The notes under the pieces: model-generated
Seen by the model: only the letters and a program-made list of their open reading frames with translations
Told to the model about the DNA's origin: nothing
Database searches by the model: none
Assembly: GCF_003097535.1 (NCBI RefSeq)
Contig: NZ_CP029187.1
Coordinates: 2,232,001-2,296,000, forward strand
Source: Flavobacterium pallidum
GTDB lineage: Bacteria; Bacteroidota; Bacteroidia; Flavobacteriales; Flavobacteriaceae
Direction: 5' to 3'
DNA: 64,000 bases
Part shown: positions 57,132 to 63,143 of the stretch, in pieces
Layout: each line of letters starts with the position of its first letter
Numbering within the stretch: position 1 is the stretch's first letter
Made by a program: the position numbers and the translations under genes

Positions 57132-57947
57132 TCAGTGCTGATTGATTGCGATAAATCCGGAAGCGATAAAATTTTTCCGCCAGATGGGCCATACATTTTC
57201 GAGTTTTTCATTTTCGATGTTGAATTCGGCAAGCAGTTTTTGTTTCGCTTCAGAAATGGACAAGCCGGATTTTATACTGCTTAAAAAGGAATATTGGTCA
57301 AAGCCGATATTGAATAATCCAAGCCGGTAATTTTGCCGGGACACCGCACAAAAAGTGTTCTGTGGAAAAGGCAGATCCGGGGACCTGTCCGCATTGAAAT
57401 CAAGGTAGAAACTGCAAATAGGGAACTGGTGTTCAAAAAGGTACAGGGTTGGTGATGCGGATAGCCATTCATCGGGCGTATTTTCATTTGCTGTGTTTTC
57501 ATCGGCGTTATTCTTCATGTCAAAAATTACTGATAAGGCAAATTCAAATGCGGCAAGTTCAATCATGAAATCCGGCCATGATTCCTGTTCGCCTTCCGTG
57601 TCGGGCCTTGTTCTGGAAAGAAATTCAGAAAATTTTTCACCTAAATTGTTCAAGGTATAACTGTGCGACGGATTGCTGTCGAGGTATTCATCGGCGAAAG
57701 CCTGAAACAATTCTTCGCCAAGTGCAAACGACAGAGCCTTGAACTGGCTTTGCATACACGAGCGCAACCTCGCAATATAACTGTGCCTGTAGATACTTAA
57801 ATGCTGTGAAGCGCTGAGTCTTTCAGAATCGCAAACCACATCTTCGGCAGTCATTCCTAATGTACTGACCGGAACCGAATTGACCAACATCGATTGCATC
57901 CAATGCTGGATTTCCTTGATTGGCAAATCGTTTTTTTCTTTTGGCAT
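57132..57947 (-). CDS. DUF2063/HvfC-BufC-like partner of the MNIO enzyme
   Basis: 271 residues. The N-terminal helical part 'EIQHWMQSMLVNSVPVSTLG' and 'ASQHLSIYRHSYIARLRSCM' with QSQFKALSFALGEELFQAFA is the DUF2063 signature (Y-R..Y..RL...L...FP.L...LG). The C-terminal part, 'SWPDFMIELAAFEFALSVIF' through 'NFIASGFIAINQH', is the longer region usual in HvfC-like proteins. These proteins work with DUF692 enzymes as substrate-binding partners in making modified Cys-rich peptides. It starts one base after the stop of the DUF692 gene, so the two are translationally coupled. Confidence 0.85.
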   Translation of the reverse strand: MPKEKNDLPIKEIQHWMQSMLVNSVPVSTLGMTAEDVVCDSERLSASQHLSIYRHSYIARLRSCMQSQFKALSFALGEELFQAFADEYLDSNPSHSYTLNNLGEKFSEFLSRTRPDTEGEQESWPDFMIELAAFEFALSVIFDMKNNADENTANENTPDEWLSASPTLYLFEHQFPICSFYLDFNADRSPDLPFPQNTFCAVSRQNYRLGLFNIGFDQYSFLSSIKSGLSISEAKQKLLAEFNIENEKLENVWPIWRKNFIASGFIAINQH

Positions 57948-57948
57948 T

Positions 57949-58899
57949 TTAAAATTTCATTTCGCTGACGAGGAAATCTACGGGATTTGAGATCACCGAA
58001 TCGGCAGGATTGTGATTTGGAACCGCGTTGAACTGCGTGCTGAATCCATTCATGAATTGTTTCGACTTCATCAACTCCTTGTGACAGGTTTCGAAGTCAG
58101 GAATATTGCCATCCCATTCCAGTAATGTTGCGGTGCCGCCTGTGAGCTGCCATGCGAGCGAAAACAATTCCCAAACCGTATCGGTGACCTTCCTGTCGTG
58201 GGTATCAATAATGTAATCGCCGCAATGCTGGTGCCCGGCAATATGCATCTGGACAATGCGGTCGTGGGGCAATTGCTTAATGTAATGCATCGGATCAAAA
58301 TCGTTGTTGAATGAGGACACATATACATTATTCACGTCAAGCAGCAAGCCACAGCCGGTTTCTTCCGTCATGTAGCGCAGGAAGTCGTATTCGGCAATGG
58401 TGGATTGCTTAAAAGTGAGGTATGTGCTGGGGTTTTCAAGGATTAAAGGCCTTTCCAGGAAATCCTGTACCTGATTGATCCGGCTGATGATGTGTTTCAG
58501 CGACGCTTCATTTAAAACTACCGGGAGTAAATCGTGGGTATTGAGCATGTTGATTCCCGTCCAGCAAAGATGGTCGCTGATCCATAACGGATTGATTTCT
58601 GCGGCAAGCGACTTGAGTTTTGAAAGGTATTCGAAGTTCAGATCATCGGTGCTGCCAATAGAAAGCGACACCCCGTGCATTACTACAGGATATCGCTCAA
58701 CCAACTGTCTTAAGATATGGCGCGGCCGCCCGCCTGAATCCATAAAATTCTCTGAAATGATTTCAAACCAATCGACTTCAGGGCGATGCTCAAGTATGTA
58801 ATCGAAATGGGTGCTGCGTAAGCCCAAGCCTAAACCGGGATTTGGCAAGGTTTTGACCATATCGCTGTATGCTGCTGCTGATTTTATGTTGTCTTTCAT
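57949..58899 (-). CDS. DUF692 multinuclear non-heme iron oxidative (MNIO) enzyme, HvfB/BufB-like
   Basis: 316 residues from the ATG at 58899; the longer frame reads through repeat DNA. The TIM-barrel family shows 'LGLGLRSTHFDYILEHRPEV', DWFEIISENFMDSGG, 'VMHGVSLSIGSTDDLNFEYL', LWISDHLCWTGI, 'LLLDVNNVYVSSFNNDFDP', 'IVQMHIAGHQHCGDYIIDTH' and LLEWDGNIPDFE. The His, Asp, Glu and Asn residues that bind the iron atoms in this family are all visible. MNIO enzymes oxidise cysteine or other residues of ribosomal peptides (methanobactin MbnB, TglH, ChrH, bufferin enzymes). The Cys-rich protein at 59172-59759 is the natural substrate candidate. Confidence 0.9.
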   Translation of the reverse strand: MKDNIKSAAAYSDMVKTLPNPGLGLGLRSTHFDYILEHRPEVDWFEIISENFMDSGGRPRHILRQLVERYPVVMHGVSLSIGSTDDLNFEYLSKLKSLAAEINPLWISDHLCWTGINMLNTHDLLPVVLNEASLKHIISRINQVQDFLERPLILENPSTYLTFKQSTIAEYDFLRYMTEETGCGLLLDVNNVYVSSFNNDFDPMHYIKQLPHDRIVQMHIAGHQHCGDYIIDTHDRKVTDTVWELFSLAWQLTGGTATLLEWDGNIPDFETCHKELMKSKQFMNGFSTQFNAVPNHNPADSVISNPVDFLVSEMKF

Positions 58900-58926
58900 A
58901 TAAATTTCATTTCTTTTATTCTTCTT

Positions 58927-59133
58927 TACTTTTTGTCTTGAAACAAAAAGTAACAAAAAATTCAAGCCAGCCTCTTCTGGCTCCGCCCAGTTCGGCCGCT
59001 GACCTCGGGTCGGCGACCTGCTATCCCTTGATTCCTAAAATCAAAAAACTCGCTGCGCTCAAACAGTTTTGATTTTTACGGAATCTTCGGAATGCAGGTG
59101 CCCGCCTGCGAAGCGGAAGGCGGAGTGACTTAC
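58927..59133. repeat. Mosaic of hairpins between the Cys-rich and MNIO genes
   Basis: The stretch contains TACTTTTTGT-CTTGAA-ACAAAAAGTA (58927-58952, perfect 10-bp stem), a longer imperfect hairpin with arms GATTCC.AAAATCAAAA..ACT and AGTTTTGATTTTTACGGAATC (59030-59085), and GCAGG..CCTGC with GC-rich flanks (59093-59130). It resembles dispersed intergenic repeats seen in Bacteroidota rather than an ordinary operon spacer, and divides the cluster into two parts. Confidence 0.55.
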
Positions 59134-59171
59134 TGAAGTATACGATGAATAAAGTATTGGGAAATAATTAT

Positions 59172-59759
59172 CTATTCCTTCTTCCCTTCGCAAAGCCTTT
59201 TGGCATTGTCCGCAGGATTATTAAACCCAAAGGAACACGTCTTGTCGCCACTGTTTCCGCAGGAATCATAAGACCCTAATACCGAAACGAGCCAGGCCTG
59301 TGGCGGACCGCATTCAAACGGAGCAGGCCCGAAATTCCGGTTGGAATCCGTCATCCTTTTTTCAAAAATCACGCGGGCACGTTTCCAGGTGCTTAATCCC
59401 TGGTTGTCGCCGAGCGTACTGAAACGTTCGGCCTGGATGGGTACGGCACAGCTTCCCTGCCATGCACAATTGTTGTTTCCGGGATTCATTTGTTGCTCGG
59501 CATCGCCGTATAAACCACACCCGCCCTGGTTGCGGCAGTTGTTCAGGGTTTGGCAGTTGTGTTGTTCTGCGGTAGCGCAAAAACCTGTGCCGGCACAATT
59601 GTTTGCGCCCGTACGGTCATGCCCTTTGCAGGCATTGAGCCCCATGCAGACGTGAAGCTCTACAGGAACCTTAACGCTTTTCGGCGCGGAAGGTGCTGCA
59701 GGATCTGGTGCTTTGCCGCCGCACATTGATAATTCTGAGTTATATTTTGTTGTAGCCAT
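59172..59759 (-). CDS. Cys-rich protein, candidate MNIO substrate (RiPP precursor-like)
   Basis: 195 residues with 14 cysteines and no classical signal peptide. A short lead (MATTKYNSELSMCGGKAPDP) and a Pro/Ala linker precede the core at 38-104. There CX5C occurs five times (C38-C44, C55-C61, C69-C75, C75-C81, C98-C104), with Gly/Asn-rich loops such as CMGLNACKGHDRTGANNCAG. The C-terminal part (105-195) is less Cys-rich, with Trp and Arg (STWKRARVIFEKRMTDSNRN) and four further Cys. Its place before the DUF692 and DUF2063 genes fits a precursor or metal-buffering peptide of the bufferin type. It is far longer than usual RiPP precursors, and part of it may be a stable domain. Confidence 0.75.
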   Translation of the reverse strand: MATTKYNSELSMCGGKAPDPAAPSAPKSVKVPVELHVCMGLNACKGHDRTGANNCAGTGFCATAEQHNCQTLNNCRNQGGCGLYGDAEQQMNPGNNNCAWQGSCAVPIQAERFSTLGDNQGLSTWKRARVIFEKRMTDSNRNFGPAPFECGPPQAWLVSVLGSYDSCGNSGDKTCSFGFNNPADNAKRLCEGKKE

Positions 59760-59794
59760 AGTCTTTAGATAAATATTTACGAAATGAAAATTGG

Positions 59795-61192
59795 TTATTT
59801 TAAGTCCACGTCCGGGAGGTCATTGATCCTGACTCCGAGGTAGGAAATGGCCGGATATACCGCTACAGCCGCTGTGTACAATGCCTGTAATTGCGCTTTT
59901 GGCCTGGCAACGGGACTGAAATTGTAGTTTTCAAAAGTAGCAGAAGCATAATACTCGTTACCATCGTGCTTGTATTTCAGTTTCATGATGTCACCGCAAA
60001 GCGAATTCAGGATAAAGATCATGGACTTGTGGATGCCGAACATGAAGGTTTCATATTGGGTGCTGCCAGACTTGCGGTAACATTCTTCGATCATTACGAA
60101 GATATAGGTGTACACGCCATTGATCAGATCGGACACCGGAGCGATATGCGCAGGATAATCCGTGGTGGCAGGATTGCTGCGGATGTTCATGACAAACAGG
60201 TCACTGAAGTGGATGTCGGTAATGCCGAGTGCGTCATATTGTTTTTCCATCGCATAATACGACTGGTAGATTTCAGCGAATTTTTCAAAATGGGAGACTT
60301 CTTTGCCTGGTTGCGGCTTGAATTTGTATTTCAGCAAGGCCAGAAAGTCGAGGTTGTTGTCTTTGTCTAAATACGGCGCATCAGGAATGATCTGCCCTTC
60401 GCCCTGTTCGACAATCAGGTTGATGGCTGCGACTGCCGAATCCCTGTCTTTGACGCAAATCAGGTCGCCGCCTTCATTTTCATTAGTGAATACCGGCTTA
60501 TGGTTCCTGTCATAGTATATGGTGTCGATATTGTTCTGGGCGTAAAATCCTTTTTCAGGGACCAGCTGCGGTGCGCGGGTGTTGTAGCGAAGCCCAGGAT
60601 TCTTGTCGAGGCAGTCGATTACCATGTCGTAAAATTCCCCGATGGTCGGATACGGGATGAAATTGCGCGCTGCCTTTAAGGCTTTCTGCTTCGGTTTCAT
60701 CGGTTTTTCGATATTCAGGAAGGTTTCAAGCTGAGCCATCGTAAGTTTGGAAGCATTGATCTTCAAAGCCGGTTTGTGTCCGGGAAGGTCGCAAGGCCAG
60801 GTTGCGGGTGAGCGTCCGTAAAGGATGGGCTGTCCGGCGAGCGCCTGCTTGATGTTCGAGGAAAGCGCCATGTGCAGCATTTCCTCAATGGCAACGCTCA
60901 TGATGATCGCCCCGGCCTTGTTGGCAAACACCATAATATCTGCCGAAAGGTTTAAAGCGATTTCGCCTGCTTCTTCAAAAGTGTAGCGGGGTTCCTTGTC
61001 GATCTTAAGCAGCGCATTGGTCAGTGAATTGATCATCGCCTGCTGGTTGGGTGCCCTGTTGATGGAGTAGTAGGTGAAAAGGTAGGTCGGGATGGTCGAG
61101 ATCTCAATCTCGATGGCTTGCTGTACCGCTTCGCCGAGATTCTCCGGAGTTACCTTTTCCGCCTTCTCGCCGAAAAATTGTTGGTGTATCAT
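59795..61192 (-). CDS. Ferritin-like domain protein (VioB C-terminal/iminophenylpyruvate-synthase-like family)
   Basis: 465 residues. The N-terminal four-helix part carries diiron-type motifs: 'AVQQAIEIEISTIPTYLFTY' (Glu on helix 1), 'ALNLSADIMVFANKAGAIIM' and SVAIEEMLHMALSSN (ExxH). Later helices with SHFEKFAEIYQSYYAMEKQY and 'FVMIEECYRKSGSTQYETFM' could complete the bundle. The family (Ferritin-like, PF12902 type) includes domains of VioB-like enzymes, but no violacein genes are here. It heads the minus-strand set with the Cys-rich, MNIO and DUF2063 genes, 35 bases before the Cys-rich gene. A redox or iron-supply role in the cluster is inference. Confidence 0.8.
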   Translation of the reverse strand: MIHQQFFGEKAEKVTPENLGEAVQQAIEIEISTIPTYLFTYYSINRAPNQQAMINSLTNALLKIDKEPRYTFEEAGEIALNLSADIMVFANKAGAIIMSVAIEEMLHMALSSNIKQALAGQPILYGRSPATWPCDLPGHKPALKINASKLTMAQLETFLNIEKPMKPKQKALKAARNFIPYPTIGEFYDMVIDCLDKNPGLRYNTRAPQLVPEKGFYAQNNIDTIYYDRNHKPVFTNENEGGDLICVKDRDSAVAAINLIVEQGEGQIIPDAPYLDKDNNLDFLALLKYKFKPQPGKEVSHFEKFAEIYQSYYAMEKQYDALGITDIHFSDLFVMNIRSNPATTDYPAHIAPVSDLINGVYTYIFVMIEECYRKSGSTQYETFMFGIHKSMIFILNSLCGDIMKLKYKHDGNEYYASATFENYNFSPVARPKAQLQALYTAAVAVYPAISYLGVRINDLPDVDLK

Positions 61193-62786: not shown

Positions 62787-63143
62787 GAACATCGATGGTG
62801 AGGACGCGAACATCGATGGTGAGGACGCGAACGTTGATGGCGAGGGCGCGAACGTCGATGACAAAGACGCAAACGTCGATGGCGAGGACGCGAACATCGA
62901 TGGCGAGGACGCGAACGTCGATGGTAAGAGCGCGAACGTCGATGTCGAGGACGCGAACGTCGATGGCGAGGACGCGAACATCGATGGCAAAGGCGCGAAC
63001 GTCGATGTCGATGACGCGAACGTCAATGGCAAGGGTGCAAATGTCGATGGCGATGGCGCGAATGTCAATGGCATGCATGCGAACGTCGATAGCTAGGGTG
63101 CGAAGGTCAATGGCTAAGGCGCGAAGATGTATGACGAGGTTGT
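62787..63143. repeat. 21-bp minisatellite, about 17 units
   Basis: Units of exactly 21 bases with consensus GAACGTCGATGGCGAGGACGC start at 62787 and continue to about 63143; the first two are identical and the last three or four decay. Because 21 is a multiple of three and the unit holds few stop-like triplets, long frames exist on both strands with heptad repeats (for example AIDVRVL on the minus strand and DGEDANV on the plus). Substitutions fall at all codon positions, so no frame stands out as coding. Confidence 0.9.

What the first reader, a model, noticed from the sequence alone, without database searches (positions are those of the whole stretch)
57132..61192. Four-gene cluster: ferritin-like protein, 14-Cys protein, MNIO enzyme and DUF2063 partner
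DUF692 (MNIO) plus DUF2063 pairs act on Cys-rich ribosomal peptides. Here the candidate substrate is a 195-residue protein with five CX5C motifs, far longer than known precursors, and the set is headed by a VioB-type ferritin-like protein. I do not know a described MNIO pathway with a ferritin-like component and such a substrate, so this may be a new RiPP or metal-handling system. The polysaccharide deacetylase downstream may or may not belong.
Basis: partly seen in the sequence, partly recalled or inferred. Interest (0 to 1): 0.85.

Follow-up and report, generated by a model that had tools for sequence, protein, structure and literature searches.

The report
Ferritin-like and Cys-rich MNIO operon
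A conserved four-gene unit found in several bacterial phyla pairs a ferritin-like protein with a cysteine-rich protein that an iron enzyme known from copper-binding peptides probably modifies; in some species the two proteins are naturally fused, which suggests a new kind of modified metalloprotein.

Summary
All 80 loci kept (of 109 found) from a scan of GTDB genomes with the Cys-rich protein (CYS) carry ferritin-like protein (FLP), CYS and MNIO, and 79 of 80 the DUF2063 partner, in one order on one strand. By record title they span four phyla. FLP and CYS are one ORF in 10 of these loci and in 4 further Bacteroidia genomes. The Cys core is related to the bufferin BufA2 domain, but the protein is longer and lacks an evident signal peptide, while the partner is DUF2063 in 43 of 43 tested. 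This departs from the published rule that DUF2063 partners go with signal-peptide precursors. The invariant Cys core is predicted as unstructured. A heme-binding family co-occurs. Best reading: MNIO/DUF2063 installs Cys-derived heterocycles, probably 5-thiooxazoles, on a cytosolic protein that works permanently with FLP as one metalloprotein. Modification, complex and function are inferred, not shown. CYS may be the published, unexplained 'adjamnio-I' precursor group (not comparable here); no FLP link was found in the papers searched.

The parts
59795..61192 (-). Ferritin-like protein (FLP), 465 aa, PF12902; first gene of the unit; four-helix bundle with E30, E104, H107, E369, H388 as candidate metal ligands
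59172..59759 (-). Cys-rich protein (CYS), 195 aa, 14 Cys, no evident signal peptide, Buf2-related core about H36-G82; proposed MNIO substrate and lasting partner of FLP
   Evidence: ten Cys in 78 of 78 aligned rows; likeness to BufA2; core predicted unstructured
57949..58899 (-). MNIO enzyme (PF05114, formerly DUF692), 316 aa from ATG; over the cut-off of the BufB model
   Evidence: NF050167 349 bits, cut-off 310; only one in the genome; groups with other FLP-linked MNIOs; aligns with solved 3bww, 8hci and MbnB chains
57132..57947 (-). DUF2063 partner protein (PME-type 1), 271 aa
   Evidence: PF09836 in 43 of 43 partners tested
58956..59137 (.). Interspersed repeat between the Cys-rich gene and the MNIO gene; not part of the system
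   Evidence: similar copies at 8 other places of this genome

Best explanation
The MNIO enzyme, guided by its DUF2063 partner, oxidises cysteines in the Buf2-like core of the Cys-rich protein, most likely to 5-thiooxazoles, in the cytosol. The product is neither cut out nor exported: the modified protein stays bound to the ferritin-like protein (or is covalently joined to it where the genes are fused), and the pair is one metalloprotein, a di-metal or heme-linked ferritin-like site beside a modified Cys domain that binds a soft metal, probably copper. Its likely job is intracellular handling of copper or of oxidants. Shown here: conserved unit, fusions, relation to Buf2, no evident signal peptide, conserved residues. 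Inferred: the modification, its chemistry, the complex, the location and the function.
For: Unit present in 80 of 80 loci for FLP, CYS and MNIO, 79 of 80 for DUF2063 (the miss, L035, ends inside MNIO at a contig edge); 80 of 109 found were kept by the tool. FLP-CYS is one ORF in 10 of 80 loci plus 4 Bacteroidia genomes; on a quick MNIO tree the state changes 5 times by parsimony, at least 2 forced. From H36 on CYS is as conserved as its enzyme (median identity to the window 62% and 62%; FLP 44%, DUF2063 36%), and FLP-CYS has the highest correlation of pairwise identities (0.87; other pairs 0.68-0.82). Core related to BufA2: hhalign 93%, score 36.9 against a maximum of 21.7 in 60 shuffles that keep the Cys columns; BufA2 model found below cut-off in 7 of 8 further members. 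MNIO over the BufB cut-off. Core predicted unstructured although invariant. Published MNIO-PME1 pairs install 5-thiooxazoles and their products generally bind Cu (PMC12668002, passages and section 10).
Against: No copper-specific gene was seen to recur beside the unit; the recurrent neighbours that could point to a metal are a heme-binding family in 8 of 80 loci and an Nramp transporter in 9 of 80, all Bacteroidota, which would fit iron or manganese better than copper. BufA2 cut-off (60 bits) not reached by the 9 members tested, and the divergent fusion L131 gave no BufA2 match. Low confidence of the core model can come from Cys-rich sequence and a small alignment alone. Shared ancestry raises all pairwise correlations. 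The sixth ferritin ligand is missing in most rows. Some FLP and CYS N-termini are fairly hydrophobic, so the cytosolic location is not certain for all.
Confidence: 0.6

Rival explanations
1. FLP is a second tailoring enzyme: a ferritin-like oxidase that modifies CYS before, after or together with MNIO, and the mature product is the modified CYS alone, as in a conventional RiPP pathway. Fused forms would be enzyme-substrate fusions like borosins (borosins recalled, no call).
For: FLP gene comes first and is in 80 of 80 loci; weak match of the VioB model to FLP; ligand residues conserved.
Against: No exporter or protease recurs close to the unit: ABC-transporter-like ORFs lie in the flanks of 9 loci, only one within 500 bases and in mixed orientation (proteases were not searched for by family). 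Fused forms in 14 loci keep enzyme and substrate in one chain. CYS is conserved from residue 36 to about 175, not only over a short core.
Confidence: 0.22
2. CYS is a plain metal-binding or disulphide-bonded protein; MNIO acts on something else (for example on FLP) or makes only a minor change.
For: Cys with invariant spacing; no experiment on any member was seen in the papers searched.
Against: Precursor-MNIO-DUF2063 order as in bufferin loci, core related to the MNIO substrate BufA2, MNIO of BufB type in the same large subtree as Buf2-linked MNIOs.
Confidence: 0.1
3. It is simply a bufferin of the Buf2 kind that lost its signal peptide; FLP is an accessory copper or iron stress protein in the same operon without contact to CYS.
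For: Core likeness to BufA2, BufB-type MNIO and PME-type 1 partner.
Against: BufA2 cut-off not met; fusions of FLP to CYS; CYS has a conserved C-terminal part that the BufA2 sequences seen here lack; FLP in every CYS locus.
Confidence: 0.08

Closest known systems
Bufferin Buf2 (BufA2/BufB/BufC), MNIO-PME1 systems
   Same: Gene order precursor-MNIO-DUF2063; MNIO over the BufB cut-off; related Cys core
   Different: No evident Sec signal peptide, about 155-277 aa with a conserved C-terminal part, below the BufA2 cut-off, with a ferritin-like protein next to it or fused
adjamnio-I putative precursors (PMC12452194, Table 2)
   Same: No signal peptide, 122-293 residues, 8-21 Cys, gene before an MNIO; ours: 71 split members including the window, 155-277 aa, 11-22 Cys
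   Different: Listed with PME-type 2 partners as major layout, ours have DUF2063 in 43 of 43 tested; no ferritin named in that main text. Sequences not compared: supplements could not be read here
Captophorins / 5-thiooxazole peptides (fontiphorin, gonophorin, oxazolin)
   Same: MNIO-PME1 pair acting on several Cys
   Different: Those products are EGKCG-type peptides; here a protein-sized substrate with C-x5-C spacing and a ferritin-like partner
Ferritin-like protein CC_0557 of Caulobacter (PDB 3hl1)
   Different: Its chain has 317 residues, too short for FLP plus CYS; its sequence was not inspected further, and no function was seen for it
VioB imine dimer synthase
   Same: Weak match of the VioB model to FLP
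   Different: 10.6 to 22.2 bits in the four matching proteins of 14 scanned, against a cut-off of 1250

Membership tests
Buf2 bufferin (BufA2) | NCBIfam NF050166 over 60 bits | tested here: not met
   13.4 bits for the window protein; at most 27.1 bits among 8 others, a match in 7 of 8
Buf2 bufferin (BufA2) | Sec signal peptide | tested here: not met
   By hydropathy only, no dedicated predictor: highest 10-residue mean in the first 45 residues has median 1.1 in 71 split members, against 2.09-2.77 in 4 BufA2. The top members (1.91 and 1.97) come near the lowest BufA2, so a few could be exceptions; starts are mechanical
Buf2 bufferin (BufA2) | Cys core homologous to Buf2 | tested here: met
   hhalign 93%, 29 columns; 0 of 60 shuffles with Cys columns fixed and 0 of 60 full shuffles reach the score
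Buf2 bufferin (BufA2) | bufA-bufB-bufC gene order | tested here: met
   80 of 80 loci up to MNIO, 79 of 80 with DUF2063
Buf2 bufferin (BufA2) | Cys modification with mass loss, absorbance near 305 nm, Cu binding | not testable with these tools
   needs protein
MNIO, BufB type | NF050167 over 310 bits and PF05114 over 25 bits | tested here: met
   349.4 and 349.8 bits
PME-type 1 partner | PF09836 match | tested here: met
   window 64.3 bits, cut-off 27.2; 43 of 43 partners at E <= 0.001
adjamnio-I | Membership by sequence in SSN cluster I | not testable with these tools
   alignment is in a supplement that cannot be read here
adjamnio-I | PME-type 2 partner as major layout | tested here: not met
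   43 of 43 partners tested match PF09836
Ferritin-like PF12902 | PF12902 over 22.3 bits | tested here: met
   126.3 bits
Ferritin-type di-iron protein | Full set of six Glu/His ligands in the helix bundle | tested here: inconclusive
   E30 in 75 of 75 rows without gap, E104 and H107 78 of 78, E369 75 of 78, H388 78 of 78; at the place of the D-helix Glu (385) E in 12 of 78. Ligand roles are recalled; no coordinates were available
VioB | TIGR04492 over 1250 bits | tested here: not met
   17.5 bits

The most novel reading that the evidence does not exclude
The four genes make a new class of cytosolic metalloenzyme: a ferritin-like oxidase or peroxidase-like protein whose metal centre or electron relay includes RiPP-type Cys heterocycles installed by MNIO on an integral Cys-rich subunit or domain, in many lineages served by a heme-binding partner (NF040572). 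MNIO chemistry would then make protein-derived cofactors and not only metallophores.
Probability: 0.3. Interest if true: 0.92.

Novelty: new variant of a known kind. Interest (0 to 1): 0.75.

Why it matters
The largest MNIO groups described make copper-binding peptides with signal peptides. Here the same kind of enzyme pair is tied, across four phyla and through natural gene fusions, to a ferritin-like protein and a protein-sized substrate without an evident export signal. If shown, MNIO modification would be a way to build cofactors into working metalloproteins. It also breaks the published link between DUF2063 partners and signal-peptide precursors, which makes the open question of what these partners recognise directly testable.

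Tried and rejected
Polysaccharide deacetylase as fifth gene: relatives in 0 of 80 other loci. Recurrent flanking genes: 820 flank ORFs were clustered by BLAST; the 25 largest clusters were printed and the 12 largest broken down by taxon. Apart from the heme-binding family, clusters that cross phyla were broad families (PAS histidine kinases 15 loci, none within 500 bases; ABC transporters 9 loci, one within 500 bases; a crotonase-like ORF, a protein-kinase-like ORF, by eye). An Nramp transporter lies downstream on the other strand in 9 loci, all Bacteroidota and at least 7 Sphingobacteriaceae, 5 within 500 bases: possibly metal-related, possibly plain synteny. DoxX was not searched for by family. 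Defence system: no PADLOC match for the four proteins. Fold of CYS: model mean pLDDT 57.6, 2 PDB matches, both at E 10, and no solved relative by sequence (best E 0.88). DUF2063 partner profile found no solved relative at E <= 0.001. Promoter and terminator scans: 9 promoter-like sites against 8.3 expected, 3 terminator-like against 6.2; a promoter pattern from recall gave no match. BufA2 in the own genome and 5 relatives: none, but the controls were silent too, so uninformative. Neighbourhoods of 12 heme-binding genes that are not linked to the unit: no gene shared by more than 2 of 12. One pair (L181, L188) shares seven neighbours, and L184 and L187, from two phyla, share an amine-oxidase and a TPP-enzyme gene; not followed.

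Limits. Among 13 PF12902 hits in 295 Bacteroidia genomes 8 lie beside an MNIO and 5 do not. The CYS profile also hits FLP because fused proteins entered it; that each set holds a Cys core was checked by pattern, 81 of 81. Three loci (L057, L059, L075) were left out because the start-of-core pattern was not found. The tree used 38 of 81 loci and dropped two short MNIOs (L127, L128). Of PMC12452194 I read the abstract, two of four parts of the Results, sections 17, 18, 19 and 21, not section 20, introduction or methods; of PMC12668002 passages and section 10; of PMC12538549, PMC4417212, PMC8224329 and PMC7907618 passages; other papers in search listings only. No supplement could be read. The meaning of 'FMP' in NF040572 was not found.
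Full report
What is there. On the minus strand of the window lie, in transcription order, FLP (59795-61192), the Cys-rich protein CYS (59172-59759), an MNIO enzyme (57949-58899) and a DUF2063 protein (57132-57947). The window is part of a 3.55 Mb genome with one match each for MNIO, PF12902, DUF2063 and CYS. The nearest CYS in the protein search is from Flavobacterium magnum, 95% identical.

Conservation of the unit. A search with CYS found 402 proteins at E <= 0.001, 120 listed. A scan of GTDB genomes gave 109 loci, 80 kept. ORF calling and iterated profile searches found FLP, CYS and MNIO in 80 of 80 and DUF2063 in 79 of 80; in L035 the contig ends inside MNIO. All are on one strand in each locus, in the order FLP-CYS-MNIO-DUF2063. 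By record title the 80 fall into Bacteroidota 40, Pseudomonadota 34, Acidobacteriota 4 and Actinomycetota 2; many are metagenome bins, so single odd placements may be binning errors. In a sample of 295 Bacteroidia genomes CYS reached E <= 0.001 in 6, PF12902 in 12 (13 hits), MNIO in 28 (30 hits). Eight FLP hits lie next to an MNIO; all eight units carry DUF2063 and a CYS domain, four of them fused to FLP (for L136 CYS comes). Five FLP hits have no MNIO beside them. Expected overlap of genomes 1.1, observed 8. Among the genomes of the same genus in that sample 1 of 6 (the own one) has it, so it is patchy; two other Flavobacterium loci came (L003, L017).

Fusions. In 10 of 80 loci FLP and CYS are one ORF: L060, L061, L068, L070, L076, L079 (Pseudomonadota), L054, L074 (Acidobacteriota), L062, L064 (Actinomycetota), and in 4 more Bacteroidia genomes (L131, L132, L134, L135). 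On a quick MNIO tree of 85 rows the fused/split state changes 5 times by parsimony, at least 2 forced by well supported branches. The segment just before the core, roughly PGxPVPxPYPY...GxPLHACMGLNSC, occurs in 15 of 23 rows printed, 5 of 10 fused and 10 of 13 split ones (the split rows were chosen by me, mostly alphaproteobacteria; the Bacteroidota row printed differs). This hints that the enzyme reads an internal stretch and not a free N-terminus.

What CYS is. In the 78 rows that could be aligned (window and 77 loci), Cys 38, 44, 55, 61, 69, 75, 81, 98, 104 and 167 are present in 78 of 78, Cys 175 in 77. From H36 on, identity to the window is 62% at the median, equal to MNIO (62%), above FLP (44%) and DUF2063 (36%). 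The N-terminal 30 or so residues vary. So it looks more like a functional protein than like a precursor with a free-running core. No Pfam family matches the window protein. The NCBIfam BufA2 model matches below its cut-off in the window protein and in 7 of 8 other members, mostly at model positions about 34-62, best E 3.7e-6. Profile comparison of the core with seven BufA2 domains, from five genomes that also hold this system, gives 93% probability over 29 columns; none of 60 shuffles with Cys columns kept and none of 60 full shuffles reach the score. CYS is thus related to Buf2 but has no clear signal-peptide-like stretch, more Cys and a conserved C-terminal part. AlphaFold2 puts residues 1-80 below pLDDT 50 and gives 75 of 195 residues, mostly beyond 80, pLDDT 70-90.

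MNIO and partner. MNIO passes the BufB cut-off and aligns with solved members 3bww, 8hci and MbnB. In a tree of 70 MNIOs the 42 FLP-linked ones form one group (89/81, 90% of bootstrap trees), apart from 8 that lie beside BufA2 matches (2 of these below the BufA2 cut-off) and 20 other Bacteroidia MNIOs. The root is not known and some branches are long. The partner matches PF09836 in 43 of 43 tested: the window, 38 of the 79 loci and the 4 fused Bacteroidia units. PMC12452194 reports that MNIOs of signal-peptide precursors have DUF2063 (PME-type 1) partners and those of signal-peptide-less precursors PME-type 2 (sections 19 and 21). This system looks like an exception.

A heme link. A protein of NCBIfam NF040572 (heme-binding; L030 member 256 bits, cut-off 150) lies at the edge of the unit in 8 of 80 loci from Bacteroidota, alpha- and betaproteobacteria (5 to 208 bases away in the 6 for which a distance was printed). 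In the 295 Bacteroidia genomes it passes its cut-off in 4, all among the 8 with the system (Fisher p 2e-7; with the 2 weak hits counted 3e-6), although not linked there. Of 30 genomes with the system, chosen by me, 14 hold it over the cut-off, 5 of these with it at the unit. The own genome has none. The test ignores kinship (two of the four share a genus code), so it is a lead, not proof.

Mechanism. PMC12668002 states that all characterised MNIO-PME1 cases install 5-thiooxazoles and that the products generally bind Cu (passages and section 10). In Caulobacter two DUF692 loci are strongly induced by copper (PMC8224329, table passage). By homology the same chemistry on the CYS core is the best guess. 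That CYS stays with FLP is inferred from fusion, strict linkage, co-divergence (0.87) and the lack of a recurrent close exporter. What the complex does, copper buffering, or oxidase or peroxidase-like work with iron, manganese or heme, is open; the Nramp neighbours in 9 loci and the heme link speak for the second as much as for the first.

Novelty. No paper in the library held MNIO, DUF692 and ferritin-like together. DUF692 with ferritin gave one copper transcriptome paper with ferritin in its reference list. DUF2063 with ferritin-like gave one Haemophilus influenzae paper, where ferritin-like means Dps and the DUF2063 gene lies in a DoxX cluster. PF12902 gave two papers, one noting such genes near fungal lodA-like genes. 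Further searches: (40 of 70,378 listed, most irrelevant). Ferritin is absent from the main text of the MNIO landscape paper. Its adjamnio-I group (100 sequences, 122-293 residues, 8-21 Cys, no signal peptide) may well be this CYS family; the partner type disagrees and the sequences could not be compared. Subscription papers and supplements were not searched.

Noticed in passing
L030, L038, L058, L063, L069, L070, L072, L079 (edge of the unit): A heme-binding protein family (NF040572) sits beside the unit in 8 of 80 loci, and among 295 Bacteroidia genomes passes its cut-off in 4, all of which hold the system.
   Followed up: partly
L002, L004, L006, L007, L010, L012, L013, L026, L027: An Nramp-type metal transporter ORF lies downstream of the unit on the other strand in 9 loci, all Bacteroidota, mostly Sphingobacteriaceae (one checked by Pfam).
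   Followed up: partly
window 58956-59137: An interspersed repeat of about 180 bases with similar copies at 8 other places in the genome lies inside the operon between CYS and MNIO.
   Followed up: partly
window 62787-63125: Tandem array of a 21-base unit, 16 copies, open in frames of both strands and running into an ORF that looks by eye like a response regulator.
   Followed up: no
L131, L132 (unnamed Bacteroidia genomes): Highly divergent FLP-CYS fusions that keep only part of the Cys core (HxCKGSNxCKxEGGCGF and a CxxxGGCAVPIS stretch), possibly the minimal functional motif.
   Followed up: partly
L143 (genome G302, that of L025 Cognaticolwellia): A BufA2 bufferin with two tandem domains in a genome that also has the four-gene unit; 5 of 18 such genomes have a BufA2 match over the cut-off.
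   Followed up: no
L184 and L187: Unlinked heme-binding genes (NF040572) from two phyla share two neighbours, a flavin amine-oxidase-type and a TPP-enzyme-type gene (Pfam run on the L184 pair).
   Followed up: no
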